Positions 2 to 24,448 of a stretch of 45,343 nucleotides of DNA are shown one piece after another. The DNA lies in NCBI GenBank assembly GCA_903887175.1, contig CAISOV010000122.1, forward strand, positions 1 to 45,343. Reading direction: 5' to 3'. How positions within the stretch are numbered: the stretch's first letter is position 1; every line of letters begins with the position of its first letter. The position numbers and the translations under genes were made by a program. This DNA comes from an uncultured Micrococcales bacterium. GTDB taxonomy: Bacteria > Actinomycetota > Actinomycetes > Actinomycetales > Microbacteriaceae. The notes below the pieces were generated by a model, which made no database searches, was not told the DNA's origin, and saw only the letters and a list, made by a program, of their open reading frames with translations.

Positions 2-3000
2 GCTACCTATCGTGCGACTGACCTGTGGGGCCGCAGTGGCCAGGGCAGTGTTTCGGTGACTGTATTGTTGCCTGCTAAGCCTGTTGTGACTGCTTCTTCA
101 ACAACCGTCAACTACAACACCGGTGCATCGTTTATGCCATTCGTAAGCGGAACAATGAACCAAACTGGTTCTGCTTGCCTAGTTGATGGTGACAACTGTG
201 TTACTGAGTTGGTTGTTGCTGGCAAGGGTACCTTCGATGTTCTTGAAGATGGCAGTGTTACTTTCATTCCACTTGCGACCTTCGCCGGAGACCTTGCTTG
301 GGTCACCTATCGTGCGACTGATTTCTGGGGCCAGACTGGTGAGAACACCATCGCGGTTACAGTTTCATTGCCGGTAGCACCAATCGTTTCTCCTGTGAAC
401 GTAACTGTTGACTACAACACCGGCACAATCCTTGTTCCACTAATTGAGAGTCCAACCAACTTCGGTGTGTGGCCGTGCCTAGTTTCGGGCAATGACTGTG
501 TGTCTGAAGTCGTAGTAGCTGGCAAGGGTACGTTCACTGTTCTTGAAGATGGCAGCGTTAGCTTCACTCCGCTACCAGGCTTCGCAGGTGGCATCGCTTG
601 GGTGACCTACCGTGCCTATGACCCATGGGGACAATACGGCCAGAACACTCTTTCGGTGAATGTCGCACTATTGGCAGCGCCAAACGTTGACGTGACTCGC
701 GTAACAACTGATTACAACGAGCCAATCAACGTGAAGCCAACTGTTGACACAGACAAGATCGATGAAAGTCGCGACTGCCTAGTCACTCGTGCTGGCTGTG
801 TAACTCACCAAGAAGTAGCCGGCAAGGGCAGCTTCGATGTTCAATCAGATGGCAGTGTTACATTTACTCCACTTGACACCTATGGCGGTGGCACAATCTG
901 CACCACCTATCGCGTGTATGACATTTGGGGCCAGCACGGCCAGAGCCAGGTCTGTGTAACAGTCTTGACTCCAGCTGCGCCGGTTGTCGATTCTCTAGAG
1001 CAGACCATCGAATACAACACCACTACAGATGTCACTCCAAACGTTGTCGGTTACAAGATTCTTGGCAACCAGGCTTGCATCGTTTCAGGCCTGCACTGCT
1101 TCAGAACCTTCACGGTTGCTGGCGAAGGCACCTTCACTGTGCTTGAAGACGGTACCCTATTGTTTGCACCGGTTGATACCTTTGCCGACGACAGTGTGAC
1201 CGTGACCTACCGTGCGTATGACATGTGGGGTCAGTTCGGCCAGAACACCGTAAAGGTGATTGTTTCGCTACCAGACGCTCCAGCTGTTGATCCAGCCGAA
1301 GTAACCGTTGACTACAACACAGTAGCCAGCGTCACTCCTTCGGTTTCAGGTGCTCACATTCAGGTCTCACTGGCTTGTCTAGTTAGCGGCAGCACTTGCG
1401 TCAAGCAAATCGTTGTTACTGGCAAGGGAACCTTCAACGTTCTAGACGACGGCAGTGTAACCTTCACGCCACTTGACACATTCGCAGGCGATAGCGTCAC
1501 TGCTACCTACCGCGCGACTGACTTCAAGGGCCAGACTGGCGAAAACACTGTTCTCGTTCACGTTCGACTACCTGATGCTCCAGTTGTAACTGGTGACAGC
1601 GACACAGTTAGCTACAACACTGTCTCAACTCTGACACCAGGTGTTTCTGGAACCAAGATTCAGCTTTCAAGTGCTTGCTTGATTGATGGAGGCAGCTGCG
1701 TGAAGCAACTTGTGGTTGTCGGCAAGGGTACGTTCCGTGTTCTAAACAGCGGATATGTAACCTTTACTCCGCTCACCACATTCGCTGGAACTGTTTCTGG
1801 AATCACCTACTGTGTTTCAGATCTCTTCGAACAGACTGACTGCGCAGAGCTATCTGTGACTGTCAACGAGCCGGCTGCACTAGTTGTTGCACCTAAGACT
1901 GTAAACGTGCAGTACCAAACCGCAACAACCTTTGCACCGACCGTTACTGGCTTGGCTATCGACTACTCAACGGCTTGTGTTGTTGACCCTGTGGGCAGCC
2001 AGTGCAAGACCAGCGTTACTGTTGATGCTGTTGGAACCTGGAACGTTGACACCACAAACGGTCACGTAACGTTTACTCCGGCAGATGGCTACATGGGCAC
2101 CTCGACAATCGAGTACCGTGTATCGAACATCTTCGGCAACGAGTCAAGCAACATCATGACCGTGAACGTCTCGGGCACCGCAACGTTGAACGGTGTGGTC
2201 TGGCTAGATCTCAACCACAACGGCATTCAAGACACCGGCGAGCCTGTTCTAGCCGGAATTCTTGTGACAGCCGGTAACACCCAGCCAGAAAACGTGGGCC
2301 CTGCTAGCACTAACAGCTACAGCGTTAGAACTGACAGTGACGGCCGTTATTCGTTCGAAGTTGTGCCAGGTAACTACGAGGTAAAGGCTTACTTGAACTC
2401 AAGCTATCTTTACACCTCAACTTCGAAAGACCCTGACACCAAGCAGGTTGAATCAACTAGCACTTGGGTTGCTACGGCCGCGGCAGTAAGCAACACAGCA
2501 AATGAAACCAACTTTGCTGCTGGTGGTAACGGTGCGATTGACGGAACAGCAGTGTTCACCAGCGGTGCGGCAGTGCCAAAGGCAACTGTCAGCTGTATCT
2601 GGTCGGGCTTCGACGGTGTTCTTGGAACAAGCGACGATGTTGTGATCACCGCGACTGCTGATGCCAACGGAAAGTTCTCGTTGACGGGTATTCCTGGTGG
2701 AAAGTTCCAGTGTGGCGGTAAGGACCCTAAGTCGGGTGTAGCTGCTGCAAAGGCCGTTGTCACGGTGAAGGGAACCTCGAACGCTAAAGCCAAGCCGGTC
2801 AAGACACCAGTTGTGTTGCCGATCAAGGTTCGCGGAAAGTTCACCTTTATCGTCAACAACTTCGCGGCTGGCTCACCAGCAGTTACTAAGGCGATCAAGG
2901 ACCGCATCACATACTTTGTAAAGAAGTACAAGATGGCGACCATGGTTAGCGTTGAAGGCTTCACTCAGGGCCCAACAGTTCTGAAGGTTGACTACAAGCT

Positions 3001-3139
3001 GTCGCTTGACCGCGCAAAGAACGCACTTGCAATCATCAAGTCGATCAATGCAAAGATCAAGCTGATCAGCATTAAGAACGTTCAAGAGAACAAGATTGGC
3101 TCGTCAGTGCGTCGTGTGAGAATCACGTTGTACTGGTAA
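2..3139 (+). CDS. Giant repeat surface protein, C-terminal part (fibril-type repeats, SdrD-like B domains, OmpA-like domain)
   Basis: The frame is open from the first bases, so the true start lies upstream; 1045 residues are visible. A half unit is followed by seven ~100-residue units (residues 25 to ~726), each with a YNT-like motif, a Cys pair, GKGTF, DGSVTFTP and YRAxDxWGQ, resembling CshA-type fibril/Ig-like repeats. Next comes an SdrD/Cna-B-like domain (from ~725) with a calcium-type loop (DLNHNGIQDTGEP), then a second shorter B-like domain (~844-905). Residues ~940-1045 look like an OmpA-type peptidoglycan-binding domain, with LSLDRA and a final RRVRITL. There is no LPXTG motif, so I infer non-covalent wall attachment through the OmpA-like domain. 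The role is probably adhesin or surface layer. It ends at a strong terminator and faces the glycan locus. Family placement is by motif only. Confidence 0.85.
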   Translation, partial: ATYRATDLWGRSGQGSVSVTVLLPAKPVVTASSTTVNYNTGASFMPFVSGTMNQTGSACLVDGDNCVTELVVAGKGTFDVLEDGSVTFIPLATFAGDLAWVTYRATDFWGQTGENTIAVTVSLPVAPIVSPVNVTVDYNTGTILVPLIESPTNFGVWPCLVSGNDCVSEVVVAGKGTFTVLEDGSVSFTPLPGFAGGIAWVTYRAYDPWGQYGQNTLSVNVALLAAPNVDVTRVTTDYNEPINVKPTVDTDKIDESRDCLVTRAGCVTHQEVAGKGSFDVQSDGSVTFTPLDTYGGGTICTTYRVYDIWGQHGQSQVCVTVLTPAAPVVDSLEQTIEYNTTTDVTPNVVGYKILGNQACIVSGLHCFRTFTVAGEGTFTVLEDGTLLFAPVDTFADDSVTVTYRAYDMWGQFGQNTVKVIVSLPDAPAVDPAEVTVDYNTVASVTPSVSGAHIQVSLACLVSGSTCVKQIVVTGKGTFNVLDDGSVTFTPLDTFAGDSVTATYRATDFKGQTGENTVLVHVRLPDAPVVTGDSDTVSYNTVSTLTPGVSGTKIQLSSACLIDGGSCVKQLVVVGKGTFRVLNSGYVTFTPLTTFAGTVSGITYCVSDLFEQTDCAELSVTVNEPAALVVAPKTVNVQYQTATTFAPTVTGLAIDYSTACVVDPVGSQCKTSVTVDAVGTWNVDTTNGHVTFTPADGYMGTSTIEYRVSNIFGNESSNIMTVNVSGTATLNGVVWLDLNHNGIQDTGEPVLAGILVTAGNTQPENVGPASTNSYSVRTDSDGRYSFEVVPGNYEVKAYLNSSYLYTSTSKDPDTKQVESTSTWVATAAAVSNTANETNFAAGGNGAIDGTAVFTSGAAVPKATVSCIWSGFDGVLGTSDDVVITATADANGKFSLTGIPGGKFQCGGKDPKSGVAAAKAVVTVKGTSNAKAKPVKTPVVLPIKVRGKFTFIVNNFAAGSPAVTKAIKDRITYFVKKYKMATMVSVEGFTQGPTVLKVDYKLSLDRAKNALAIIKSINAKIKLISIKNVQENKIGSSVRRVRITLYW
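74..2179 (+). repeat. Seven in-frame tandem coding repeats of 300 bp
   Basis: Units start at 74, 374, 674, 974, 1274, 1574 and 1874. The anchor ending in CTACAACAC (or a variant) closes at 120, 420, 720, 1020, 1320, 1620 and 1920, so there is not one indel over six successive periods. Only unit 7 has two extra codons, between its two cysteines. Units differ by many substitutions, so this is an old array held in register rather than a recent expansion. Confidence 0.9.
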
Positions 3140-6526: not shown

Positions 6527-7963
6527 TTGAATGCAACACCGCTTGACCTTGCAACTTTTTGGGGCAAGTTTCTTGAAACCGAGAAACGCACTCGGGCACT
6601 TTCAAAACGATTTGGCACGATTCAGCTTTATGCGCTGCAACGCACCCGCATTTTTTATGCCATTGCTGAGCAGCTTGGGCTTTTTGATAACCCTCACCCG
6701 CATTTCAATCGTGATGAGCTGAGTGCAGATATTCCGCCAATCACCCACTTAGACGGTTTGTCGCCTGCAAACGCCGTTGTAGTGCCCTTTAGACGCCGCG
6801 TTGGGGGCTCAGAACCTTATAGCGACGTCATTCGTCATCGCCTGCTTGCTGCGGGCGAGTCGGTGCGTGTGATCGACTTTTTGCCTTCAACTGATGAGTC
6901 GGGCAGTTTTACCCCGAATGCGGCTGATGAGTTAGACCTCGAGCGGCTAAAAGCGTTCTTTGCGACCTCAAAGGCCACCCAAGTTGCTCGAATCATGAAA
7001 TTCAGCAGTCGAAGACCTCAAGTTCAGGCCTGGCAAAAGCTAATTGGTGAATTTGAAACCGCCTTTGGCATCAAGCTCGAAAAGTTTCAAAAATACCCGC
7101 AGTGGTTAGTTCGGCGTACATTGGCTGAGCGCATGGGTTTTGCCGAACTTTTTCGCAAACTTGGCACAAAAGATCTTTATGTCGTGAATGCCTATAGCGA
7201 GCCGTCAATAGTTTTGGGGGCCCATCGGGCAGGTGTCAAAGTTCACGAGATTCAACACGGCTTCATTTCGGCATTTCACCCTGCCTATAGCTTTGGCTTG
7301 CCGTCAGAGTCAAAAAAATCAAAGTCAGTGCGTGGCCCAAAGCTTGACGCAGCCGCAGACACGATTTTGACTTGGGGAGGTTACTGGGGCAGCAAAGTCA
7401 TGCTTGCCAGAGGTACACAACTCAAGGTTTCAGGGCCTAGCGCACCTTTTCAAGAATATCGCCAAAAAGCGCTCGCCGAGAACCGCATCATTGCCAAACA
7501 GGTGCTTTTCACCTCGCAGGGCGCAATAGCCAATGAGCTTTTTGCGGCAGCGCTCAAAACAGCCGCCGCTCTGCCAGATTACAAAGTGATCTATCGGCTT
7601 CACCCAAACGAGGCACTAGAAGATTTCGAGGCTGCTTTGGCTGAGGCCACCAAGAAAGCCAAAGCAGTCGGTGCAACTGTGCCAAAAAACTTTAGCCTCA
7701 GCCATCGCGACCCTATTTTTCTTGATTTGGTATCACGCAGCGAGTTTTTGATTGGAGCTTTTTCAACCACCCTGTTTGAGGGCATTGCGCTTGGCTGCAA
7801 AGTTTTAGTGCTGCCCATCAGTGGCTACCAAAATGTGCAACCCGCAATTGACGCCGGTGACATTACGCTTATAACTAGCCTCGATGAACTGCCCAAGGCG
7901 CTGGTTGCGGCTCGCAGGGCAGAGCATCCTGAGAAATATTATGCGAAAGAAGATCATGCCTGA
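6527..7963 (+). CDS. Capsule-type GT-B transferase, candidate nonulosonyltransferase
   Basis: 478 residues. The TTG start is chosen because GAAGGG lies about 10 bases upstream; nearby ATGs are out of frame. The C-terminal half resembles capsular/sialyl transferase-like GT-B proteins: HEIQHGFISAFHPAY from residue 240, YRLHPNE (H359-P360), and a late IGAFSTTLFEGIALG motif that would hold the nucleotide-sugar phosphate. The N-terminal 200 residues are unrecognised. Its stop overlaps the neuB start by 8 bp, so the two are translationally coupled. The simplest reading is that this enzyme uses the CMP-nonulosonate that NeuB leads to; this is inferred from context only. Confidence 0.65.
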   Translation: MNATPLDLATFWGKFLETEKRTRALSKRFGTIQLYALQRTRIFYAIAEQLGLFDNPHPHFNRDELSADIPPITHLDGLSPANAVVVPFRRRVGGSEPYSDVIRHRLLAAGESVRVIDFLPSTDESGSFTPNAADELDLERLKAFFATSKATQVARIMKFSSRRPQVQAWQKLIGEFETAFGIKLEKFQKYPQWLVRRTLAERMGFAELFRKLGTKDLYVVNAYSEPSIVLGAHRAGVKVHEIQHGFISAFHPAYSFGLPSESKKSKSVRGPKLDAAADTILTWGGYWGSKVMLARGTQLKVSGPSAPFQEYRQKALAENRIIAKQVLFTSQGAIANELFAAALKTAAALPDYKVIYRLHPNEALEDFEAALAEATKKAKAVGATVPKNFSLSHRDPIFLDLVSRSEFLIGAFSTTLFEGIALGCKVLVLPISGYQNVQPAIDAGDITLITSLDELPKALVAARRAEHPEKYYAKEDHA

Positions 7964-9026
7964 TTTGTTTGATTTCGAAGTCAATGGCCGTGTTTTTGGC
8001 TATTTGAACCCATATTTGATTGCTGAGATTGGCGTGAACCACGAAGGTTCACTTGATCGTGCCAAACAAATGATTGACCAGGTCGCTCGCGCCGGCGGGC
8101 ACGCAGCCAAGTTTCAGACCTACAAGGCAGCTACCCTCGCGGCCAAAACCACCAGCCCCGCTTATTGGGATCAAACCAAAGAAGCAACCAGCAGCCAATA
8201 TGAGCTTTTTCAGCGTTGGGACAACTTTGGCCCGGCCGAATACGCCGAGCTCGCTGACCACTGCAAGGCACAGGGGATCGACTTTTTGTCGACACCATTT
8301 GATCTAGAGGCAGTTGACATGCTCACCCCGCTGATGCCTGTGACAAAGGTCGCTTCGGCAGATCTCACCAACATTCCGCTGTTGCGCAAAATCGGCGCGA
8401 CTGGCGCCACCGTTGTGATGTCTTGCGGCGCCTCAGATCTTGCTGAAATTGCTCGCAGTCTTGACGTGCTGCTAACAGCCGGCGCCAAAAGTGTGACACT
8501 TTTGCACTGCATCTTGAATTACCCCACACCACGCGAGCATGCTCAGCTGGCCCAAATCAAAGTTTTGCAAGAGCAGTTTGGCAGCCGAGTAGCCATCGGC
8601 TATAGCGACCATGTTCGCCCCGAAGACGATGGTGCTTTGCCGACACTAGAAATCGCTAGCCTATTTGGTGCTCGGGTAATCGAAAAGCACTTCACCGATA
8701 ACAAGCAAGGTGTGGGCAATGACCACTACCACGCCATGAACGAAGCTGACCTGCGAGCGTTTGTTGATAAGTTGGCCCTTTATCGCACCCTCTATGGCAA
8801 ACGTGAACACAGCCTTGATGCCCAGTCGGCTGCTATCAACAATGCCAGACGCCGTGTCATTGCAGTGCGTGACTTAGCAGTTGGTCACACGGTTGCCGCT
8901 GATGACCTGATCGCTTTGCGCAGCAACATAGGCATTGAAATTGCCAGCTGGGATCAAGTCGTTGGTCGCACGGTAATCGCACCGATTGCCGCCGACATGC
9001 CACTCGAGTGGAATCAGCTGGGCTAA
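7956..9026 (+). CDS. neuB: NeuB/PseI/SpsE-type nonulosonic acid synthase
   Basis: 356 residues from the ATG at 7956, chosen because AAAGAAG precedes it and it overlaps the upstream stop; an in-frame ATG at 7941 is also possible. It condenses phosphoenolpyruvate with a 6-carbon amino sugar to make a 9-carbon nonulosonic acid. Visible are AEIGVNHEG (23-31), KFQTYKA (52-58), the barrel motifs SADLTNIPLL, GYSDH and EKHFT, and a C-terminal antifreeze-like (SAF) domain starting near RRVIAVRDL. Whether the product is sialic, legionaminic or pseudaminic acid cannot be settled; a PseG-like partner on the opposite strand favours a bacillosamine- or altrose-type precursor. The last 4 bp overlap the convergent partner gene. 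Confidence 0.9.
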   Translation: MPDLFDFEVNGRVFGYLNPYLIAEIGVNHEGSLDRAKQMIDQVARAGGHAAKFQTYKAATLAAKTTSPAYWDQTKEATSSQYELFQRWDNFGPAEYAELADHCKAQGIDFLSTPFDLEAVDMLTPLMPVTKVASADLTNIPLLRKIGATGATVVMSCGASDLAEIARSLDVLLTAGAKSVTLLHCILNYPTPREHAQLAQIKVLQEQFGSRVAIGYSDHVRPEDDGALPTLEIASLFGARVIEKHFTDNKQGVGNDHYHAMNEADLRAFVDKLALYRTLYGKREHSLDAQSAAINNARRRVIAVRDLAVGHTVAADDLIALRSNIGIEIASWDQVVGRTVIAPIAADMPLEWNQLG

Positions 9027-10660
9027 AGACCCAGCTTGCGCATAATGCGCGCCACAATCGAGGTGTTATTTCGGCCGGCGGTTGCACTTAGCGCACGATC
9101 GTGCAGCGTGCGCCGCAGTTCGGCGTCATCGCAAAGTTTATTGATGTGTGCGCCTAAGGTTTCTGTGCTTACCAGCGACCCCAGCCCCATCATGATCACA
9201 CCGTTGTTCACTGTTGTGTGGGTGTGAGTTAGCTCTTTGGCGTTTTGCGCCAAACACAGTGTAGGCACACCAATGCAACTCAGTTCGGTGATGGTTCGCC
9301 CCGCTGAAGAAATCGCGATGTCGGCTTTGGCCATAAGCGAGGGCATGTTTTTAACATTTGACAGAATTTGCAGGTCAAGACTGCTGTACTTAGCAGGGTC
9401 AACCAAGCTGGCACCCAGGCCACGCACCAGCGTTACTCGGCCTTTGAAAGCGATGCTCTGTAACGCCTCGAGCGCTTTGATGGCCAAATTTGAGGGGTCT
9501 GTGCCACCGAAAAGCAGCAAAATGTCTTCGACTGTGTCACGAAATTTTGTTTTGCGAGGCAGGCTTTCGAAGCTCGGCGCCAAGATCGAGTTTTGAACAC
9601 CGGTCAGTTGACGGTCGGCAGGCACCCGAGGGTTTTCATAAAGATCAGCAACTAAAAGGTTTGCTTGCTCTGCGCCCGAGCCCAAGTCTTCAAAAGTCAC
9701 TATTTTGGAGTGCTCGCCCAATAGTGCAACAAACTCTTGATGGGTATCAAGTTGATCGAGCACAATCAGGTCAGCACGAGTTTTTCGGGCAAGGTTCAGA
9801 AACGCCAGTTCGTCTTCGACTGTTTCGACTCTAAAAGGGTATTCCTGAAAAAAACCTACGCCCAGAGGTTTGTCGACACTCAAAACGATGGTTATTTCAT
9901 GTCGAGCTAGAGCATAGGCCAGTGCTAAAGTGCGATAGGCGTGCCCCATTCCAAGCTCGCGCGCTGCATCGGTGCGCAACAGAATGCGACGCCGAGTTGC
10001 CAAATGCTCAGCTATGGCCCAGTCAGCGAACGTGTCAATGTCAAGCGCCTCGCCCTCTGGCACTTCAATTAGGCGAATCGGTTCAACAATGCGGGTCTCA
10101 AATTTGACCACGTCGCCAATACGAGCGCCAATGATTGCGCCAGATTCACGAAAATGCGGTGGCAGTTGCTGTCGATTCACTCGTGCTGCGTAATCGGGGC
10201 GCGGGTTGCCGCCCTCATCTAGTCGCCATGCGAGGTGTCTGTCATCAATCACAGTTATTACCGAACCGGCGCCGTCGGCAAAAGCCTTCATGGCTTCACG
10301 CACCCGGGTGCCTGTGATGAACGGGCAGGTGGGTTGCATCGTTAGAAGCACGTCGGCGTCGGTTGCACCCAGCTCACGCAGAAAAGGTATGGTTCGAACC
10401 ATAACTTGATCGAGAGTGGCTTTGCCTGTGGTTTTTTCTTCGCGGGTGACAACAGCACCGTAGTGCAGCGAAATCTCTTCGATTTCGTCGTCATCGGTAA
10501 TCACGGCAACCCGCCCAGGCAAAGTTGAAGCCAAGGCGGTTTTAATGGTGCGTGCTATTAGAGGTTCGCCGCCAAGCAGTCTGACGTTTTTGCGAGGAAC
10601 CCCGGTTGATCCACCGCGAGCTGGAATGACAATAAATGGCTTTGCCAGCGACGATGCCAT
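9023..10660 (-). CDS. Fused CMP-nonulosonate cytidylyltransferase / PseG-like (SpsF-SpsG type) protein
   Basis: 545 residues from the ATG at 10660; a longer TTG start at 10696 would intrude into the upstream gene. Residues 1-222 are a NeuA/PseF/SpsF-type cytidylyltransferase: ARGGSTGVPRKN (14-25), MQPTCPF (108-114) and the metal-site motif ALDIDTFADW near 205-214. Residues 225-545 match PseG/SpsG-type UDP-sugar hydrolases or GT28-like enzymes: LLRTDAARELGMGH with the expected catalytic His240, a GGTDPSN phosphate loop, and a late TELSCIGVPTLCLAQN donor-site motif. The protein would thus join two non-adjacent steps, UDP release from the precursor and CMP activation of the product. It is the last gene of the 13707-9023 operon and lies 4 bp after the GT2. 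Confidence 0.85.
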   Translation of the reverse strand: MASSLAKPFIVIPARGGSTGVPRKNVRLLGGEPLIARTIKTALASTLPGRVAVITDDDEIEEISLHYGAVVTREEKTTGKATLDQVMVRTIPFLRELGATDADVLLTMQPTCPFITGTRVREAMKAFADGAGSVITVIDDRHLAWRLDEGGNPRPDYAARVNRQQLPPHFRESGAIIGARIGDVVKFETRIVEPIRLIEVPEGEALDIDTFADWAIAEHLATRRRILLRTDAARELGMGHAYRTLALAYALARHEITIVLSVDKPLGVGFFQEYPFRVETVEDELAFLNLARKTRADLIVLDQLDTHQEFVALLGEHSKIVTFEDLGSGAEQANLLVADLYENPRVPADRQLTGVQNSILAPSFESLPRKTKFRDTVEDILLLFGGTDPSNLAIKALEALQSIAFKGRVTLVRGLGASLVDPAKYSSLDLQILSNVKNMPSLMAKADIAISSAGRTITELSCIGVPTLCLAQNAKELTHTHTTVNNGVIMMGLGSLVSTETLGAHINKLCDDAELRRTLHDRALSATAGRNNTSIVARIMRKLGL

Positions 10661-10664
10661 TTGG

Positions 10665-11639
10665 CTACTTGCGTTCGCGATAAATCTTAGGCTCAACGCC
10701 TACGTGCAGCTCAATCTCACGCACGCGGTGCAGTGTCTTGGTGGTTAGCGAGCGAACCGAGTTGATTGAGTCGGCGATGATGCCGAACAAGAACACCTGA
10801 ACGCCTGAGATGGCCAAAACTGCGCCCAGAATGGTTGACTGCAGGTGCTGGTGCGGGTGGCCTGCAAATGCGTCAATCAGCCATGGAGTCCAAGCGCCAA
10901 GAGCCAGAATCAAAAGTGTGAAACCTACCGGCACAAAAAGGTGCATTGGGCGATACTGCACATAAATGCGCATCATGGTCATGCCGTTTCTGCGAACGTA
11001 TTTCCAGGTTGATCCAAAGAGGCGGCTCGGGCGCACACTGTCGTTGCGTTTTACTGGCACGTTGGTCAAGGCCAAAGAAGCGTCGTCGACCTGAATGAGG
11101 CTTTCGATTGTGTAGGTGAATTTAGTCACCAAGTTAATCTGCAGGGCTGCATCGCGGCTAAAGGCGCGAAAACCGCTGGTTGCATCGTGAACGTTGGTGC
11201 CCGAGAACTGCTGCACCACACGGGTTCCGAAACGCTGCAAAACGCGCTTTAGAGGCGAGAACTCTGAAACCTTGCGGGTGTCGCGGTCACCAACCACAAC
11301 ATCGGCACGACCTTCGACGATTTCTGCTACTAGCGCCGGAATCGCTGAGGCGTCGTATTGATTGTCGGCATCAGTGTTGACGATGATATCGGCGCCAAGC
11401 TTTAGGGCTGCGTCGATGCCTGCCTGAAAAGCCGAAGCAAGACCTTGGTTGTGTGAAAAGCGCACGACATAGTCAACTCCATTGGCAAGAGCAACCTCGG
11501 TGGTGTTGTCGGTCGAACCATCGTCGATTACCAACCATTTGACCTCGTCGATGCCAGGCAACTCGCGAGGTAGCTCCTTGAGTGTCGCCGGCAAAAACTC
11601 TGACTCGTTGAGGCATGGAATCTGAATGAATACTTTCAA
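10665..11639 (-). CDS. GT2 glycosyltransferase, polyprenyl-phosphate sugar synthase-like
   Basis: 324 residues. An N-terminal GT-A domain has VIDDGSTDNT (37-46) and a DxD-type NTDADNQY (88-95), and the later SGFRAFSRD segment is typical of DPM1/GtrB-like enzymes. Two transmembrane helices follow (roughly 230-255 and 263-288). This architecture usually loads a sugar from a nucleotide donor onto undecaprenyl phosphate at the cytoplasmic face. The polytopic gene 4 bp upstream (11643-13091) could be the matching extracytoplasmic transferase. The sugar is unknown. Confidence 0.85.
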   Translation of the reverse strand: MKVFIQIPCLNESEFLPATLKELPRELPGIDEVKWLVIDDGSTDNTTEVALANGVDYVVRFSHNQGLASAFQAGIDAALKLGADIIVNTDADNQYDASAIPALVAEIVEGRADVVVGDRDTRKVSEFSPLKRVLQRFGTRVVQQFSGTNVHDATSGFRAFSRDAALQINLVTKFTYTIESLIQVDDASLALTNVPVKRNDSVRPSRLFGSTWKYVRRNGMTMMRIYVQYRPMHLFVPVGFTLLILALGAWTPWLIDAFAGHPHQHLQSTILGAVLAISGVQVFLFGIIADSINSVRSLTTKTLHRVREIELHVGVEPKIYRERK

Positions 11640-13851: not shown

Positions 13852-15849
13852 TCATTTTGCCGCCGCCGGGGCAGCTGAAAGACCACCCAAAGCCTTCAGA
13901 ATCGAGCTTTCGAGCCGGTGCTCTAACGTCATTGAAAAGGTTGCCGAAATGTGGCTGTCGTCGCGATAAACCACGTTGTTATCAATCACGGGCGGGCAAA
14001 AGTCTTTTTGGCAGTAGGCATCGGTGTAATCAGCGTAGGTAACTCCGGGCAAGCCCTTGATCGCTGGGGCCATTGGGTCGGCAGGCGTCATCGCGTGAGA
14101 CTTCGACAGGCCGCAGCTTGTGGCGGCACTTGGCCCGGCGGCTTCAACGCAAGCGACAAAAGTTGCTAATGGCTTTGGGTTGTCGAGAATCACCATCCAT
14201 TTGTCACCGCGGGCAACCAGACGCTGCACCTCGGTCTTATAGGCCGCCGCAGAAGAAGCGAAATTGCCAGTCACAAATGATGAGGTTGAATTGATGATCA
14301 GGTCAAACTTCGGCTGAGTCGCTATGAATGCTTCAAGTTTCTGGTTCCATGACTTACAACTGATGTGAGCTACTGCGCTTGGCAAAGTCGCGGCGTCGGC
14401 TAGCGGGCAAGCGCTCTTTGATGCAACTAGCAGCCTCCAGTGGTGGGCAAGCGCGAGCGCCTCAATCGGGTCATAGTATTGGCGCGTGTGCGAATCGCCA
14501 AATAGACCAATCAGCACTTTGCCGTTAGAGTCGCCCTTCACGCAGTAGCTGAAATCAAAGTCGTTCTTTTGCACACGGCAAACGCTGTGTTCAATTTTCG
14601 GATAATCTTTGCCCACCTTAGAAATCGGCGGGTTTAGGTGAGTGTCGCTCCAACTCGCATCAACTTGGGTTTGTGCGAACAGGGATCCGCCCAAAGCCAA
14701 GCCGATGACGGACAGCATCGCAACAGCGGCTGTTACTAGTTGGGTGCTGCTTCGCTTCTTTGCAAGCGACCCGAATCGAATGGGGTCTTCGACAAATTGC
14801 TTTGACAGCCAAGCAAGCACGAGAGCCACGCCGATGATTGCGATGCGATCGTTGGTGGTTAGGTTCTGGTGCAAAACCCATGGCGCCAAAATAATGAGCG
14901 GCCAGTGCCAAAGATAAAGCGAATACGATATGTCACCCAAAAATTTGAGTGGCCAAAATTTGAAAACCCACCATGGCGCCAAATGGCTTCGAGAATCGCC
15001 ACCGAGCAAAAATGCCATCGCGCCGACAGTTGGCACAGCTGCCCAGTATCCGGGGAACGCCGTGTGGGCATTGAATTTGAGCAAACCATAAGCCATTAGT
15101 GCCAGGCCTACCCAAAGCAGTGCGGCTTTTAAGTGGCGGTTTAGCTCACGAGAGCTGAAAATAACGGCTACTAGAGCACCGCCGGCAAACTCCCAGGCTC
15201 TGGTGAAAGTGCTGAAATAAGCAAGCTCGGGTTCGGTGGTTGTGAGATAAACCGAATAAGCCAAGCTGCCTACAAAAATGAGCCACAAACCTGCGCTGAT
15301 TGCGAATTTGACACTGAGTTTGCCAACCAATTCTTTAGCTCGGGTTAGCAGCAGCAAAAGGCCCAGAATTAGTGGCCAAAATACATAGAACTGTTCTTCA
15401 ACAGACAATGACCAAAAGTGCAAAAACGGCGAATCAGCGGTGTTGGCTTGCAAATAATCGGTTGCCTTGCCGGCTAGCACCCAGTTTTGAACGTAACTAA
15501 CCGAACCGGTGATTTCATCGACAAAACCGAGATACCAGAGCGGTGGCACAAAGATCAGAATCACAACAATTGTGACGGCAATCACCAAAAGCGAAGCCGG
15601 CAAGAGTCGCCGCGCTCGCCGTGCCCAAAACTGTGAAAATTTCACACGACCGGTGGCTTCGACCTCGCGCCATAACTGACCGGTTATTAGAAAACCAGAA
15701 ATTACAAAAAAGATGTCGACGCCAATAAAGCCACCTTTAAAGTGGGTTGGCCAAAGGTGATATGCGAAAACTGAAGTGATCGCTAAGGCTCGCAGAGCTT
15801 GAATGTCTGCTCTTGCGGCTGCGAGTCTGGGCTCACCGCGCAATTTCAC
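13852..15849 (-). CDS. Acyltransferase-3 (OafA/YrhL type) with C-terminal SGNH domain, copy 2
   Basis: 665 residues, GTG start overlapping the upstream paralog's stop by 4 bp. The N-terminal part has about ten membrane helices and the acyltransferase-3 signature: RADIQALRALAI, His31 in YHLWP, GVDIFFVISGFLITGQLW and SLSVEEQFYVFWP. The C-terminal extracytoplasmic SGNH domain has GDSH (G451-H454) and the second catalytic block DDSH (630-633). In this family the membrane part moves an acyl group across the membrane and the SGNH domain places it, usually O-acetyl, on a cell-surface sugar. Substrate unknown. Full length, with both catalytic blocks intact. Confidence 0.9.
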   Translation of the reverse strand: MKLRGEPRLAAARADIQALRALAITSVFAYHLWPTHFKGGFIGVDIFFVISGFLITGQLWREVEATGRVKFSQFWARRARRLLPASLLVIAVTIVVILIFVPPLWYLGFVDEITGSVSYVQNWVLAGKATDYLQANTADSPFLHFWSLSVEEQFYVFWPLILGLLLLLTRAKELVGKLSVKFAISAGLWLIFVGSLAYSVYLTTTEPELAYFSTFTRAWEFAGGALVAVIFSSRELNRHLKAALLWVGLALMAYGLLKFNAHTAFPGYWAAVPTVGAMAFLLGGDSRSHLAPWWVFKFWPLKFLGDISYSLYLWHWPLIILAPWVLHQNLTTNDRIAIIGVALVLAWLSKQFVEDPIRFGSLAKKRSSTQLVTAAVAMLSVIGLALGGSLFAQTQVDASWSDTHLNPPISKVGKDYPKIEHSVCRVQKNDFDFSYCVKGDSNGKVLIGLFGDSHTRQYYDPIEALALAHHWRLLVASKSACPLADAATLPSAVAHISCKSWNQKLEAFIATQPKFDLIINSTSSFVTGNFASSAAAYKTEVQRLVARGDKWMVILDNPKPLATFVACVEAAGPSAATSCGLSKSHAMTPADPMAPAIKGLPGVTYADYTDAYCQKDFCPPVIDNNVVYRDDSHISATFSMTLEHRLESSILKALGGLSAAPAAAK

Positions 15850-17840
15850 TTCAAAAACTCCTTGGGCAAAACTGCTTCAAATGCCGGCCGCAGCGTTGCC
15901 GCAAACGTGTTGGTTAGGTGGCTGTGGTCACGATAGACGATTATGTTGCGAATCACCGGTGAACAAATTTGCGTGCAATAGATGTCGGTGAAATCTGCGA
16001 TGGTAACCCCGGACAGACCTTGAATTGCCGCGGGCAGATGATCTGCGGGGGTAAGACCAACCTTTCTCGGCACCGAACAAAACTTTGCCACTTGCCTTTG
16101 GTGGGCTTCGATGCAGGCCAAAAAGTTTTCTTGAGGTTTTGTGTTGTCGAGCACATGCAGCCACCTAGAACCTCGCGCAAGTTGGCTCATGACCAGGTCT
16201 TTGAATCTCGGCGCTGCACTTCGAATGCCAGAGGTGACCCAGGTTGAAGAAGCTGAAATGATCAGGTCAAACTTTTTGTGCCCTGCCAGGTAGCTTTTTA
16301 GACTTTTCTGCCAGTTGACGCAGGTTTCGTTTTCTTTGGTGCTGGCGCCAACGCCGGGCGACAGTGGCGGGCAGGCAGATTTTGAAATTACCGTGATCTT
16401 CCAGCGGTTTGCCTTGCCAATAGCTTCGAGCGGGGTGAAGTACTCGCGAATGTGCGAGTCGCCAATCATGGCAACTGAGATTATTCCTTTAGGGTCGCCA
16501 AAGTTGCAGGTCAAAAACGCATCTTGCTTAGTTGTCACTCCGCATTTTTGCTTGTCGATGGCAGGAATATCTTTTGGCACATCAGCCAATAGAGGGGTGA
16601 ATTCCTTTGCAGCGTAGCTGTGCTTCAGCACATAAGTGGTGCGAGTGCCCATCATCGACGAAGAGTAGACAACTGCCACGACCGCAACCAGTGCGATGAG
16701 CAGCTGAATGTAGTTGTTGCGGCGGCTGAGCCAACCAAACCGCACTGGGTCTTCGATGAAACGCTTCGAAAGAAAGGCCAGCACAACAGCAACCAGCAAA
16801 ACCAGCGGCCAAAAGCCAGCGTTGAATTTTTGACCGTACCAAATTGGCACCAACACTAGAAGCGGCCAGTGCCAAAGGTAGAGCGAATAAGAAATGTCAC
16901 CCAAAGTTTGCACCGGTGCCCATTTGAGCCACCAGCGAGGCATTAGGCGGTGTTCAGATTCGCCACCAAAGATGGCCAGCATTGCGCCGACAGTGGGCAC
17001 GGCCGCCCAAAAACTCGGAAAAGGTGTGTCGCTGGTAAACCAGAAGATGCTTGTCAACATCAGAGCGACGCCGGTGAAGAACCAAATGAAGCTGCGTGAT
17101 TTCGGTTCTGAAACCTTCACCAAACGTTGGTCAAAGACAATGGCGACCAGAGCCCCACCAGCGAATTCCCAGGCGCGCGTAAAAGTGCTGAAATAGGCGA
17201 CTGCCTGGTCAGCTTCGGTGAGCTGAACCGAAGCCCACAAACTCGCGACCACGATGAGGCCAAGCAGGCCGGCGGCGATCCAAGAACGAGCCTTAATGGA
17301 GGTTCGCAAACCTAGGCTAACCAACAAGACCAGCCCAACTAGAAGCGGCCAAAAAATATAGTATTGCTCTTCAACCGAAAGCGACCAAAAGTGTTGAAAG
17401 GGCGAAAGCGAGCTAATGTTTTGCTGCAAATAGTCGGTCGATTTGAAAATCATCAACCAGTTTTGCCAATAGGTGGCAGAGGCCGAAGCCTCGTCAAAAA
17501 TCAACATCGACCTTGTGCTTGGCATGAACGCAAGCGATGCCAGAGCGGTCAACACAATAACTAAAAGTGAGACCGGCAATAAGCGCCTAGCTCGTCTGGC
17601 CCAAAACTGAGCAAACTTGACTTTGCCATCTGCTTGAACTTGACGCCACAACTGGCCTGTGATCAAATAACCCGAAATTACAAAAAAGATGTCAACGCCG
17701 ACAAAACCACCCGTGGCGGCATTAGGCCAAAAATGGAACACTACAACGCTGAGAATCGCCAAAGCTCTTAGGGCCTGGATGTCTGCACGAATTGCGCCGT
17801 GACCAGGCCGAATTGAGCCAAGTTGGGAGCTTTCGGGCAT
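15846..17840 (-). CDS. Acyltransferase-3 (OafA/YrhL type) with C-terminal SGNH domain, copy 1
   Basis: 664 residues and the same architecture as the next gene: RADIQALRALAIL, His36 in FHFWP, GVDIFFVISGYLITGQLW, SLSVEEQYYIFWP, then SGNH with GDSH (460-463) and DHSH (638-641). It is clearly a tandem paralog, yet the two differ across most of their length, most strongly in the SGNH half, so the duplication is old and acceptor or acyl specificity may have diverged. The ATG has TAAACT six bases upstream and no ribosome site, so it is probably leaderless. Start regions of this gene and the divergent GT2 gene are only about 25 bp apart. Confidence 0.9.
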   Translation of the reverse strand: MPESSQLGSIRPGHGAIRADIQALRALAILSVVVFHFWPNAATGGFVGVDIFFVISGYLITGQLWRQVQADGKVKFAQFWARRARRLLPVSLLVIVLTALASLAFMPSTRSMLIFDEASASATYWQNWLMIFKSTDYLQQNISSLSPFQHFWSLSVEEQYYIFWPLLVGLVLLVSLGLRTSIKARSWIAAGLLGLIVVASLWASVQLTEADQAVAYFSTFTRAWEFAGGALVAIVFDQRLVKVSEPKSRSFIWFFTGVALMLTSIFWFTSDTPFPSFWAAVPTVGAMLAIFGGESEHRLMPRWWLKWAPVQTLGDISYSLYLWHWPLLVLVPIWYGQKFNAGFWPLVLLVAVVLAFLSKRFIEDPVRFGWLSRRNNYIQLLIALVAVVAVVYSSSMMGTRTTYVLKHSYAAKEFTPLLADVPKDIPAIDKQKCGVTTKQDAFLTCNFGDPKGIISVAMIGDSHIREYFTPLEAIGKANRWKITVISKSACPPLSPGVGASTKENETCVNWQKSLKSYLAGHKKFDLIISASSTWVTSGIRSAAPRFKDLVMSQLARGSRWLHVLDNTKPQENFLACIEAHQRQVAKFCSVPRKVGLTPADHLPAAIQGLSGVTIADFTDIYCTQICSPVIRNIIVYRDHSHLTNTFAATLRPAFEAVLPKEFLK

Positions 17841-22548: not shown

Positions 22549-23877
22549 TTAGTTAGCTGCTGCGTGAACGTTGCGGCCAAGGGCAATAACTCGCCACCCG
22601 GCATTTTGCCAATCGGCAACCGGCAAAGCGTTGCGACCTTCGATTAGCAAACGGTTAGCAACAACCGCGCCGATGTGTGCTGGGTTAAGTTCGCGATATT
22701 CTCGCCACTCAGTTGCCAAAACCACCGCTTCGGCACCTTGTGCAGCTGCCAACAGGTCTTGTTCGGTGTCGAACTCAGGGTGTTGAGCATTGACATTCTC
22801 AAGCGAGATCGGGTCGTGAATCATCACGTTTGCGCCGGCTGCCAAAAGCAATTTGGCTACCGCAATGGCTGGGCTGTCGCGCAGGTCGTCACTGTCTGGC
22901 TTAAATGCTGCACCGAGCACCAAAACCTTTTTGCCACTCAGGCTGCCAAGCTCGCTCTGGGCGATTTCAACCACGCGGTTGCGGCGACGCAGGTTAACCT
23001 GGTCAACGTCTTCAAGAAAGTCAACGGCTGAGCCAACGCCAAGCTGTTCAGCGCGAGCCATGAAGGCACGAATGTCTTTAGGCAAGCAACCGCCACCAAA
23101 ACCGATGCCGTTACGCAAGAACTTGTTGCCGATGCGTTCGTCGTAGCCAATTGCCTCAGCCAACTTAACTGCATCTGCACCTGAAACTTCAGCGATTTCG
23201 GCCATCGCGTTGATGAATGAAATCTTGGTTGCCAAGAATGAGTTTGCGGCCACCTTGACCAGTTCGGCGGTTGGAATATCCGTGACCAAAAATGGGGTGC
23301 CTAGATCGGTGATTGGTTCATAAACTTTGCGAAGCAACTCTTCGCTGCGCTCGTCATTCACGCCGATCACGATGCGGTCGGGGCGAAGTGAATCTTCAAG
23401 TGCGGTGCCTTCGCGCAAGAACTCGGGGTTCCAGGCTAGGTGAGGCACAAAGCCGACTTTGGCGGCCAACGCTGCCGTCAGCTCAGCGGCGGTGCCCACT
23501 GGCACGGTTGATTTACCTGCAATGACTGCGTCTTCGCGCAGATAAGGTGCCAAGGCGTCAATGGCCGCGTGAAGGTACTCGGTGTTTGCTGCGTAGCTGC
23601 CTGGCAACTGTGGTGTGCCTACGCACAAGAAGTGCATGTCGGCTTCAAAAGACTCTTCGTCGTGGTTCTCTTTGAACTTGATGTTGCCCTTTTCGAGCAC
23701 CTTTTGCAAAGCTTCTGGCAGCCCTGGTTCGTGGAACGGGATCAATCCGTTTTGTAGGTCGCCCAAACGCTTAGGGTTTGGTTCGATGCCGATAACCTCG
23801 TGCCCAAGCTCAGCCATCGCGATTGCGTGGGTTGCGCCGAGGTAGCCGAGTCCGATAACAGTAATTTTCATGGCCAT
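22549..23877 (-). CDS. ugd: UDP-glucose 6-dehydrogenase family protein
   Basis: 442 residues from the ATG at 23877, preferred because a TAAACT box sits 8 nt upstream; the ATG at 23871 would remove two residues. The NAD-binding GLGYLG motif is followed by KSTVPVGT and NPEFLREG, and the catalytic cysteine is in GFGGGCLPKD, as in two-fold NAD-dependent sugar-6-dehydrogenases. It would oxidise UDP-glucose from GalU to UDP-glucuronate. GDP-mannose or UDP-HexNAc dehydrogenases share these motifs, so the substrate is inferred from galU being nearby. It is first in the exporter operon. Confidence 0.85.
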   Translation of the reverse strand: MAMKITVIGLGYLGATHAIAMAELGHEVIGIEPNPKRLGDLQNGLIPFHEPGLPEALQKVLEKGNIKFKENHDEESFEADMHFLCVGTPQLPGSYAANTEYLHAAIDALAPYLREDAVIAGKSTVPVGTAAELTAALAAKVGFVPHLAWNPEFLREGTALEDSLRPDRIVIGVNDERSEELLRKVYEPITDLGTPFLVTDIPTAELVKVAANSFLATKISFINAMAEIAEVSGADAVKLAEAIGYDERIGNKFLRNGIGFGGGCLPKDIRAFMARAEQLGVGSAVDFLEDVDQVNLRRRNRVVEIAQSELGSLSGKKVLVLGAAFKPDSDDLRDSPAIAVAKLLLAAGANVMIHDPISLENVNAQHPEFDTEQDLLAAAQGAEAVVLATEWREYRELNPAHIGAVVANRLLIEGRNALPVADWQNAGWRVIALGRNVHAAAN

Positions 23878-23885
23878 AAGCCAAA

Positions 23886-23891
23886 AGTTTA
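23886..23891 (-). promoter_or_regulatory. Putative leaderless -10 box for the exporter operon
   Basis: TAAACT on the minus strand lies 8 nt before the ATG at 23877. It is divergent from the plus-strand box at 23924. Confidence 0.4.
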
Positions 23892-23923
23892 CCGCCTGAT
23901 AGCAACAAAGGGCATTACTTGGG

Positions 23924-23929
23924 TAGCCT
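23924..23929 (+). promoter_or_regulatory. Putative leaderless -10 box for the 23936 gene
   Basis: TAGCCT lies exactly 6 nt before the ATG at 23936 with no purine-rich ribosome site. It probably drives the small membrane protein, nucS and the Nramp-related gene as one unit, since their coding regions overlap. Confidence 0.45.
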
Positions 23930-23935
23930 TGTGGC

Positions 23936-24448
23936 ATGGCAAGCAAATACAACTATCAGCCACACCCGCATGTCGAAACTCGCAAAACCAGGGGCCCAGC
24001 GACTTCTCGCAACGTGCACAAAGGCAAAACCCAAGTCAACACAAGACTGGCTAAGTTCAACAACATCTTGGGTTTTCGAATCACGAAATCTATCGGCACC
24101 ATGTGGGCGGCCTACATTTTTTGTGCATTGTCGCTAGTTAGCTTGCCGTCGGTCATAACAAGTGGCAACGCGGTTACGATTGTGGCTTGGATCGCGCAAA
24201 CTTTTTTGCAGTTGGTGCTTTTGCCGATCATCATTGTGGGGCAAAACATTCAAGCTGAATCTTCTGATGCCCGCGCAATTGCCACTTATGAAGATGCCGG
24301 AGCGATTCTTGAAGAGTCTAAAGAGATTCAAAATCACCTTGCTACCCAAGATCAGGCGCTCAGCGAATTGATCGACAAGGTGGGGGTGCTTGAAGCGAAG
24401 CTGCTTGCAGGCCAAAACCAAAAGGGCACTTCTCAGGCTAAAGACTGA
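23936..24448 (+). CDS. Small two-helix membrane protein (actinobacterial DUF1003-like)
   Basis: 170 residues. A basic N-terminus (1-50) is followed by two membrane helices, about 54-74 and 80-102, ending in [14 protein letters not shown], and then a charged helical tail with coiled-coil character (115-160). The helix pair is like small conserved actinobacterial membrane proteins related to DUF1003; function unknown. The stop overlaps the nucS start by one base (TGATG), so it is co-transcribed with nucS. A functional link with mismatch repair is not implied by anything in the sequence. Confidence 0.65.

What the first reader, a model, noticed from the sequence alone, without database searches (positions are those of the whole stretch)
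7956..10660. Fused cytidylyltransferase-PseG gene facing neuB tail to tail
NeuB on the plus strand and a two-domain SpsF/SpsG-like protein on the minus strand overlap by 4 bp. The fusion joins the enzyme acting just before NeuB with the one acting just after it, so NeuB would work between the two domains of one polypeptide, which suggests substrate channelling. The genes for making the amino-sugar precursor (PseB/C/H or Leg equivalents) are not in the window.
Basis: partly seen in the sequence, partly recalled or inferred. Interest (0 to 1): 0.6.

Follow-up and report, generated by a model that had tools for sequence, protein, structure and literature searches.

The report
Compact two-gene nonulosonic acid pathway
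A small-genome actinobacterium carries two touching genes that together look able to free a sugar, turn it into a sialic-acid-like nine-carbon acid and activate it, in a genome where none of the usual preparatory enzymes that were looked for was found, so it may use an undescribed short route.

Summary
In detail: neuB (7956-9026, +) and a 545-aa fusion (9023-10660, -) overlap tail to tail by 4 bp. The fusion is a CMP-nonulosonate synthetase (residues 1-222) joined to a PseG-like GT-B domain (224-545). 'PseG' is misleading. I found the fusion in 16 actinobacterial genomes, with NeuB within about 2.2 kb each time. PseB lies near 0 of 15 complete fused loci but 19 of 21 ordinary PseG loci. Ten of the 16 genomes, three of them at least 97% complete, have no PseC-type aminotransferase. 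Seven, all one genus, also lack Epimerase_2 (NeuC/WecB) and GlcNAc 2-epimerase. The fused PseG halves form one clade that keeps the putative catalytic His but has its own sugar-side signature. The synthetase half lacks the Pse-type residues and resembles a solved CMP-Kdn synthetase at the 5-substituent pocket.

Best reading: a two-gene, three-activity module. The PseG-like domain frees a hexose from a common nucleotide sugar, NeuB condenses it with PEP, and the N-terminal domain makes the CMP-sugar. The product is most likely Kdn-like, not pseudaminic or legionaminic acid. Substrate and product are inferred, channelling is untested, and a transferase role for the GT-B half remains open.

The parts
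7956..9026 (+). neuB: nonulosonate synthase (NeuB barrel + SAF domain), 356 aa
   Evidence: PF03102 227 bits, SAF 38 bits; the only PF03102 match in the genome; barrel motifs kept; nearer the NeuB_NnaB model (275) than PseI (213), both under cut-off
9995..10660 (-). N-terminal domain of the fusion (residues 1-222): CMP-nonulosonate synthetase
   Evidence: CTP_transf_3 57.5 bits; best PDB sequence hit 9t4z, titled CMP-Kdn synthetase; VIA Z 25.3 to 9t4z, 26.3 to V. cholerae NeuA
9023..9991 (-). C-terminal domain of the fusion (residues 224-545): PseG-like GT-B domain, probably a nucleotide-sugar hydrolase, own subfamily
   Evidence: TIGR03590 110 bits; VIA Z 23.8 to PseG-UDP 3hbn, 26.8 to MurG 3s2u; fused halves one clade, 99/96 support
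6527..7963 (+). GT-B fold protein whose stop codon overlaps the neuB start (ATG 7956, TGA 7961-7963); candidate nonulosonate or capsule glycosyltransferase
   Evidence: no Pfam hit; weak TIGR04396 27 bits; model pLDDT 84 matches GT-B folds including a bacterial polysialyltransferase and 2-epimerases; relatives in 5 of 12 fused loci compared
10665..11639 (-). GT2 glycosyltransferase directly upstream of the fusion, same strand
   Evidence: PF00535 84 bits; 4 nt between its stop and the ATG at 10660
22549..23952 (-). UDP-glucose 6-dehydrogenase-like gene of the same surface-glycan region
   Evidence: TIGR03026 419 bits, TuaD 333 bits (below its cut-off)

Best explanation
The fusion and NeuB form a two-gene, three-activity pathway to a CMP-nonulosonic acid that bypasses the pseudaminic/legionaminic precursor enzymes. 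Proposed order: (1) the C-terminal PseG-like domain hydrolyses a common nucleotide sugar and frees an unphosphorylated sugar with the manno configuration at C2; (2) NeuB condenses it with PEP into a nine-carbon acid; (3) the N-terminal domain activates it with CTP. The product is most likely Kdn or another acid with a hydroxyl rather than an acetamido group at C5, for which the released sugar would be mannose. Shown: gene structure, domain identity, constant pairing with NeuB, one clade of fused PseG halves, absence of PseB/PseC nearby and of PseC in ten genomes, retention or replacement of the named residues. Inferred: each reaction, the substrate, the product, transfer to a surface glycan, and any channelling between the domains.
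For: Pairing: in 12 fused loci compared all-against-all (L046, L047, L059 left out; 4 of the 12 from the window clade) only NeuB recurs in all 12; no other sense partner exceeds 5. Precursor genes near the locus (tblastn, above 150 bits): PseB 0 of 15 fused against 19 of 21 ordinary PseG loci; PseC 0 of 15 against 16 of 21 (loci are not independent, so the Fisher p of 2.4e-8 is only a guide). Whole genomes: 10 of 16 fused genomes have no PseC hit above 28 bits, among them G293 (99% complete), G724 (99%) and G829 (97%). The two fused genomes with a PseC above cut-off (G649, G794) have it in a separate ordinary pse cluster. Positive control: G265, same genus, has a full cluster with separate PseF and PseG (PseB 499, PseC 421, PseI 468 bits). 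Synthetase half: F192 column Arg in 12 of 15 fused and in the CMP-Kdn synthetase 9t4z, 0 of 10 NeuA-like synthetases from pse loci; K142 column Trp in 15 of 15 versus Arg in those 10. In N. meningitidis NeuA, Tyr179/Phe192/Phe193 form the N-acetyl pocket and Kdn is about 5000-fold poorer (PMC2901514 passages). PseG half: His17 column His 15 of 15; Tyr78 column Leu 15 of 15 (Tyr in 16 of 21 ordinary); Arg455 15 of 15 against 0 of 21.
Against: No biochemistry. The substrate is deduced from absences and from alignment columns beside a gapped loop. Three of 15 fused rows lack the Arg (Lys, Leu, Met). The eight HAD-type actinobacterial rows also show Arg there but as Arg-Phe-Phe, so their pairing is ambiguous and I do not count them; Trp, Gln and Arg at the other columns are shared with the mouse Neu5Ac enzyme. 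The genomes lacking all three searched precursor families are one genus, and most are incomplete MAGs. NanE, importers and GDP-mannose genes were not searched; PseB was searched genome-wide only in the window genome. NeuB keeps the Arg314 position that I recall (unchecked) as contacting the N-acetyl group, and its best NCBIfam model is N-acetylneuraminate synthase (below cut-off). In the NeuB tree one ordinary locus with PseB and PseC (L107) groups with the fused partners (98/95). The His also lies in a GxGH motif that I recall from MurG, so it does not prove hydrolysis. L150 has a DegT aminotransferase (281 bits; 121 bits to PseC, under my threshold) and an epimerase next to the fused pair.
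Confidence: 0.42

Rival explanations
1. Neu5Ac variant: the PseG-like domain (or the GT-B protein at 6527-7963) has become a hydrolysing UDP-GlcNAc 2-epimerase that gives ManNAc, so the pair makes CMP-Neu5Ac.
For: NeuB nearest to NeuB_NnaB; UDP-GlcNAc is universal (general knowledge); both GT-B proteins match UDP-GlcNAc 2-epimerase folds among many others; neither PF02350 nor PF07221 nor DegT in 7 of 16 fused genomes, so ManNAc would need a new source.
Against: The N-acetyl pocket of the synthetase half is changed (PMC2901514); the 6527-7963 protein has relatives in only 5 of 12 fused loci compared; a shared GT-B fold shows no function.
Confidence: 0.22
2. The GT-B half is a transferase, not a hydrolase: a synthetase-transferase fusion in which the CMP-sugar made by the N-terminal domain, or a UDP-sugar, is transferred by the C-terminal domain. 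NeuB would draw its sugar from general metabolism.
For: MurG is structurally slightly closer (Z 26.8 over 304 residues) than PseG (Z 23.8 over 260); PF04101 is a GT28 domain; the PseG Tyr and Asn-Gln motifs are replaced.
Against: By sequence PseG scores 110 bits and MurG 27, and the other three fused proteins scanned score 94-127 for PseG; the only constant partner is NeuB.
Confidence: 0.16
3. Ordinary Pse/Leg pathway with the precursor genes elsewhere in the genome or in assembly gaps.
For: PseG/PseF are the best NCBIfam labels; the window genome is 92.5% complete; six of 16 fused genomes do have some DegT aminotransferase.
Against: Ten of 16 fused genomes have none, three of them at least 97% complete; the synthetase lacks the Pse-type Arg/Tyr/Ser pattern; NeuB lacks the usual PseI letters; fused PseG halves form their own clade.
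Confidence: 0.1
4. Scavenging: the free sugar comes from outside and the PseG-like domain only clears a nucleotide-sugar by-product or is vestigial.
For: Importers were not searched; MFS and ABC genes exist in the window.
Against: 34 positions of the PseG half are identical in all 15 fused proteins, which are as little as 27% identical overall, so the domain is under constraint.
Confidence: 0.05

Closest known systems
Pseudaminic acid pathway enzymes PseG-PseI-PseF (C. jejuni; also in G265 of the same genus, L062)
   Same: Same three reaction types: NDP-sugar hydrolysis, PEP condensation, CTP activation; pseF and pseG are adjacent separate genes in the three named records opened (L113, L114, L115)
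   Different: No PseB/PseC nearby; hydrolase and synthetase in one polypeptide; Pse-type specificity residues absent in the synthetase half; own PseG subfamily
B. subtilis SpsC-SpsD-SpsE-SpsG-SpsF legionaminic pathway (PMC7439481, passages read)
   Same: SpsG stands between precursor synthesis and the synthase SpsE, outside Pse synthesis, on UDP-linked sugars; that SpsG is PseG-related fits the TIGR03590 control match in B. subtilis
   Different: Needs SpsM dehydratase, SpsC and SpsD; SpsF and SpsG are separate proteins
Synthetase-HAD fusion beside NeuB, the common form in this order (25 of 29 loci inspected show the HAD-like tail)
   Same: CMP-nonulosonate synthetase fused to a third activity, several beside a NeuB; same Trp at the K142 column
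   Different: Third domain is a HAD-type hydrolase (PF08282 in the two scanned), which would fit a 9-phosphate route; the two NeuB scanned lack SAF. That it makes Kdn is my guess; S. coelicolor wall teichulosonic acid contains Kdn (PMC7831098 passage), but I did not link the genes
CMP-Kdn synthetase PpNeuA (9t4z), and the P. parvum Kdn route (PMC6200933 passages); that 9t4z is from P. parvum is my assumption
   Same: Closest solved relative of the synthetase half by sequence, same Arg at the pocket
   Different: The P. parvum route starts from Man-6-P and its synthase rejects free mannose; no PseG-like domain in 9t4z
Serratia marcescens KL1/KL2 Kdn capsule (PMC9000132 passages)
   Same: In the passages seen, neuA and neuB are the sialic acid genes of the locus, and Kdn is the main product (about 20:1 over Neu5Ac)
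   Different: There NeuB, not NeuA, carries an extra domain (sugar phosphate isomerase/epimerase, COG1082)

Membership tests
PseG, UDP-6-deoxy-AltdiNAc hydrolase (TIGR03590) | Score above the equivalog cut-off 153.55 bits | tested here: not met
   110.4 bits; three other fused proteins scanned 93.8, 126.6 and 122.8
PseG, UDP-6-deoxy-AltdiNAc hydrolase (TIGR03590) | Histidine at His17 of C. jejuni PseG (its role as general base is recalled, not read here) | tested here: met
   H240 in 15 of 15 fused and 21 of 21 ordinary rows
PseG, UDP-6-deoxy-AltdiNAc hydrolase (TIGR03590) | Tyr of the D-x-Y motif and Gln of the Asn-Gln motif seen in ordinary PseG | tested here: not met
   Leu 15 of 15 versus Tyr 16 of 21; Glu 14 of 15 (Asp 1) versus Gln 19 of 21
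PseG, UDP-6-deoxy-AltdiNAc hydrolase (TIGR03590) | Hydrolysis of the UDP-diacetamido sugar | not testable with these tools
   needs an enzyme assay
PseF, CMP-Pse synthetase (TIGR03584) | Score above cut-off 205.7 and Pse-type residues (Arg at K142, Tyr/Leu at Q104, Ser at R165) | tested here: not met
   86.1 bits; Trp 15 of 15, Gln 15 of 15, Arg 14 of 15 fused versus Arg, Tyr/Leu, Ser in 10 of 10 NeuA-like Pse-locus rows (7 rows of another PseF type and one truncated row not counted)
CMP-nonulosonate synthetase superfamily (NeuA) | CTP_transf_3 domain and active-site Arg12, Lys21, Gln104, Arg165, Asp209, Asp211 equivalents | tested here: met
   57.5 bits; residues present in the window protein; in L150 the Arg165 and Asp positions are changed
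NeuB nonulosonate synthase (PF03102) | NeuB barrel, SAF domain and barrel motifs | tested here: met
   227 and 38 bits; Lys-x-Gln and Ser-Asp-His kept in 14 of 14 fused partners aligned
PseI or NnaB equivalogs | Score above equivalog cut-off | tested here: not met
   PseI 213 of 340 needed; NeuB_NnaB 275 of 400 needed
Pseudaminic acid pathway | PseB and PseC present | tested here: not met
   PseC/DegT absent from the window genome and nine other fused genomes; PseB absent from the window genome and from 15 of 15 fused loci; six fused genomes do have a DegT aminotransferase
Sialic acid (Neu5Ac) pathway | NeuC-type or other 2-epimerase for ManNAc | tested here: inconclusive
   PF02350 and PF07221 absent from the window genome but one or both present in some other fused genomes; NanE not searched
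Kdn pathway | Synthetase pocket lacking the N-acetyl-binding residues | tested here: inconclusive
   Arg at the F192 column in 12 of 15 fused and in 9t4z, no aromatic residue at the pair in any of 15; consistent with Kdn, but the loop is gapped and mutagenesis is lacking
Kdn pathway | Mannose or Man-6-P as the condensed sugar | not testable with these tools
   needs an assay

The most novel reading that the evidence does not exclude
A de novo CMP-Kdn route in two genes: the PseG-like domain is a GDP-mannose (or other NDP-mannose) hydrolase that feeds unphosphorylated mannose to NeuB, which makes Kdn for the synthetase domain of the same polypeptide. It would replace the Man-6-P, Kdn-9-P and phosphatase logic by nucleotide-sugar hydrolysis, with NeuB working between the two active sites of one protein.
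Probability: 0.25. Interest if true: 0.75.

Novelty: new variant of a known kind. Interest (0 to 1): 0.6.

Why it matters
If true, PseG-family proteins are not tied to pseudaminic or legionaminic acid, and a genome can make an activated nine-carbon acid from a common nucleotide sugar with two genes. Annotation that reads 'PseF/PseG' would predict the wrong sugar for these actinobacteria. The fusion offers a direct test of channelling around NeuB, and a compact two-gene source of an activated nonulosonic acid would be useful for making glycans. It also shows two different hydrolases (HAD type, PseG type) joined to the same kind of synthetase in related bacteria.

Tried and rejected
Sequencing error or frameshift joining two genes: rejected, 15 complete fused proteins from 15 genomes.

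Same fusion in plasmids or phages: not seen. Of the six plasmid records covering at least 80% of the query I opened three (Acinetobacter, Parabacteroides, Sinorhizobium): separate adjacent genes inside pse clusters. The other three were not opened. The one phage hit covers 37%.

Fusion as the common form in the order: rejected. In one search, 59 of 248 genomes matched, but only the window genome over the full length; the others match the synthetase half (one, L025, to residue 298). Of the other 58, 29 loci were inspected: 25 have a HAD-like tail (DFDGVHT), one runs on into NeuB, three have no tail.

One dehydrogenase type feeding the pathway: rejected. The neighbouring nucleotide-sugar dehydrogenases score best with different models (TuaD in the window, UDP-ManNAc dehydrogenase in L056/L060, TviB in L100, all below those models' cut-offs).

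Viral origin: the viral-contig scan gave three half-length relatives only; PHROGs gave nothing for three window proteins.

The 6527-7963 protein by profile against the PDB: only weak hits to alpha-actinin and troponin (E 0.02 or more). Its fold searches give GT-B proteins of many functions and no decision.

Literature: searches listed no paper whose title or abstract start describes a fused CMP-synthetase/PseG protein or a PseB/PseC-less PseG-NeuB pair. Searches showed only part of their hits (15 of 545, 10 of 64,894, 12 of 29) and 85 was off topic; one found nothing. I read passages, not whole papers, of PMC7439481, PMC7591256, PMC9000132, PMC7831098, PMC13214540, PMC2901514 and PMC6200933. 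The library is open-access only; the C. jejuni PseG structure paper is not held, so its residue roles are recalled.

Numbering slip: my printed NmNeuA numbers above about 150 are one too high (printed 193 is F192, printed 166 is R165); the report uses corrected numbers, and rests on the printed sequence strings.

Rows dropped or chosen: 7 of 17 ordinary synthetase rows belong to another type (like L062 PseF) that does not align at these columns, the truncated L155 row was left out (also from the tree), and the 10 other actinobacterial NeuA rows (8 HAD-type, 2 without tail) were picked. The 21 ordinary PseG loci are 12, G265, three named plasmid records and five that I chose from the half-length matches; one of them, L153, is itself a PseF-PseG fusion of another type. 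NeuB was missing or cut in L059, L099, L104, L105 and L106.

Full report
OBSERVATION. The window is contig C122 of a 1.41-Mb genome in 130 contigs (92.5% complete). Its nearest named relatives are Microbacteriaceae/Micrococcales MAGs. neuB runs 7956-9026 on the plus strand and the fusion 9023-10660 on the minus strand, sharing 4 bp. The reading frame upstream of neuB (6527-7963) overlaps the start of neuB by 8 bp, and the fusion ATG follows the stop of a GT2 gene after 4 nt. This NeuB is the only PF03102 match in the genome.

DOMAINS. Residues 10-128 match CTP_transf_3 and 381-512 the GT28 C-terminal domain. NCBIfam gives PseF over 11-220 and PseG over 225-473, both clearly under the equivalog cut-offs. 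An AlphaFold2 model from 15 fused proteins (mean pLDDT 88.8, pTM 0.79) aligns its first 224 residues with NeuA-type synthetases (VIA Z 22.6-26.3) and 224-545 with GT-B proteins, MurG 3s2u first (Z 26.8, rmsd 2.8, 304 residues), PseG 3hbn Z 23.8 (rmsd 3.0, 260 residues). Structure alone therefore does not choose between hydrolase and transferase; sequence favours PseG (110 against 27 bits for MurG).

RELATIVES. The PseG half was found in 10 of 67 genus genomes: the window's own, seven close relatives (66-92% identity, one cut by the contig end), one at 30% that is also fused (G293), and one (G265) that is unfused. In a phylum sample TIGR03590 matched 14 of 396 genomes; three of these, the window's own, G649 and G410, have the fused gene. 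In the class of G649, a profile of the fused proteins gave six full-length fusions among 38 matching genomes of 296; their scores (377-773 bits) stand far above the half-length matches (155 or less). The peptide-pattern scan of genome contigs found four fused records among seven loci. In all, 15 complete fusions and one truncated one, every one in the window's phylum; other phyla were tested only.

NEIGHBOURHOODS. NeuB lies within about 2.2 kb of the fusion in every fused locus, touching or close in most; in L056, L057, L058 and L059 ORFs lie between. All-against-all comparison of 12 fused loci found NeuB in 12 of 12; the next sense partners, a GT2 gene, the 6527-7963 family and a nucleotide-sugar dehydrogenase, reach 5 of 12. 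PseB lies near 0 of 15 fused and 19 of 21 ordinary PseG loci; the two ordinary loci without it are a contig-start and a 3.5-kb stretch (L108, L110). One fused stretch (L059) is only 4.2 kb. G649 and G794 carry both an ordinary pse cluster and a fused locus. The same genus also has a complete cluster with separate PseF and PseG in G265, which shows that the searches can see PseB and PseC in such genomes.

WHOLE GENOMES. PseC (TIGR03588), which also picks up other DegT aminotransferases, gives nothing above 28 bits in 10 of 16 fused genomes: G000, G268, G274, G283, G291, G293, G295, G297, G724, G829; the other six (G299, G410, G649, G736, G750, G794) have at least one full-length DegT hit. The Pfam DegT model agrees for the genus: of nine fused genus genomes only G299 has a full-length hit. 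PF02350 (NeuC/WecB) is over cut-off in one of those nine (G295; G293 shows only 19.8 bits, inside the fusion itself), weak in G829 (31 bits), and strong in G410, G649, G724, G736, G750 and G794. PF07221 (GlcNAc 2-epimerase) is present in 3 of 16 (G829, G750, G794). Thus G000, G268, G274, G283, G291, G293 and G297 lack all three; G293 is 99% complete, the others 66-93%. PseB was searched genome-wide only in the window genome (45 bits at best against a cut-off of 408).

TREES. The fused PseG halves are one side of a branch (99/96; 100% of 200 bootstrap trees), their NeuB partners too with less support (88/76), and the synthetase halves with less again (77/71). Roots are arbitrary. One ordinary NeuB, from L107, joins the fused partners at the next branch (98/95), so that NeuB type is not exclusive to fused loci. 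The position of G293 differs between trees (NeuB with the window clade, PseG and synthetase halves with G410), so parts may have been exchanged.

RESIDUES, SYNTHETASE HALF. Arg12, Lys21, Gln104, Arg165 and the two metal Asp equivalents are kept in the window protein. At the K142 column all 15 fused proteins have Trp, as do the mouse enzyme and 9t4z, while 10 of 10 NeuA-like synthetases from ordinary pse loci and the solved Aeromonas CMP-Pse synthetase have Arg. At the F192 column 12 of 15 fused proteins have Arg, like the CMP-Kdn synthetase 9t4z (title); the Neu5Ac enzymes have Phe or Leu there and none of the 10 Pse-locus rows has Arg. The loop is gapped, so the exact pairing may be off by one, but no fused row has an aromatic residue at the pair. 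The eight HAD-type rows read Arg-Phe-Phe and are ambiguous. The Neisseria study concludes that three hydrophobic residues are needed for preferring Neu5Ac over Kdn (PMC2901514, passage). The CMP-Kdn synthetase of P. parvum does not make CMP-Neu5Ac (PMC6200933, passage).

RESIDUES, PSEG HALF. The His of GxGH is invariant in all 36 rows. Against ordinary PseG the fused subfamily has D-x-L in place of D-x-Y, E-D-x-G, an extra Arg455, (Lys/Arg)-Glu in place of Asn-Gln (one row has Asp for Glu), and His479. The pocket looks more charged, which would suit a hydroxylated sugar better than a diacetamido-6-deoxy sugar; this is inference. The roles of His17, Tyr78 and Asn255 in C. jejuni PseG are recalled, not read.

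NEUB. The 14 fused partners aligned keep K-x-Q, S-D-H, E-K-H and the C-terminal Arg. Most show (N/D)DHYH and HC-x-L-x-YPT where most ordinary PseI show other letters; L102 (fused) and L107 (ordinary) are intermediate. These do not tell ManNAc from mannose.

A PARALLEL. In the same order the usual form is a synthetase with a HAD-like tail (25 of 29 loci inspected), several beside a NeuB; two such pairs were scanned and showed PF08282 and no SAF domain. That would fit a 9-phosphate route. The fused PseG form would do the equivalent from a nucleotide sugar. This comparison is mine and untested.

CONCLUSION. The gene fusion is real, and it is spread over several families of the phylum. The function given by the annotation (pseudaminic acid) fails the tests that could be made; a compact route to another nonulosonic acid fits best, with Kdn the leading candidate. 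Transferase activity of the GT-B half and a Neu5Ac route remain open.

Noticed in passing
L153 2818-4569 (genome G737): An independent fusion: a different type of PseF joined to PseG (583 aa), in a stretch that does hold PseB; so the two enzymes seem to have been fused more than once.
   Followed up: partly
L007-L035 (29 loci of the 58 other genomes of the order matched): 25 of 29 synthetases carry a HAD-like tail and several sit beside a NeuB; the two NeuB scanned lack the SAF domain. In L014 synthetase and NeuB hits lie in one 576-aa open frame.
   Followed up: partly
L062 3841-9269 (genome G265, same genus): A complete classical pseudaminic cluster with separate PseF and PseG in the same genus: the surface-sugar locus seems to differ between species.
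   Followed up: partly
window 10665-11639 against L047/L063: The GT2 gene is 97.5% identical to its relative there, while the fusion is 86% and the other window genes with relatives on that contig are 45-91%; unusually conserved for its place.
   Followed up: no
L056 12680-13942 and L060 4129-5391: UDP-ManNAc dehydrogenase-like genes directly upstream of the fusion in genomes where no UDP-GlcNAc 2-epimerase (PF02350) was found; their substrate is unexplained.
   Followed up: no
L150 5958-12721 (genome G794): A thiamine-pyrophosphate enzyme, a DegT aminotransferase (281 bits) and an epimerase flank the fused gene and its NeuB, the one fused locus where I found an aminotransferase close by.
   Followed up: no
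L107 9635-16535 (genome G366): An ordinary locus with PseB and PseC whose NeuB groups with the fused partners rather than with PseI.
   Followed up: no
window 13852-17840: Two adjacent related acyltransferase-SGNH proteins (PF01757 + PF19040), possibly O-acylating the surface glycan.
   Followed up: no
window 56-3139: Large CshA-type repeat adhesin next to the glycan region.
   Followed up: no
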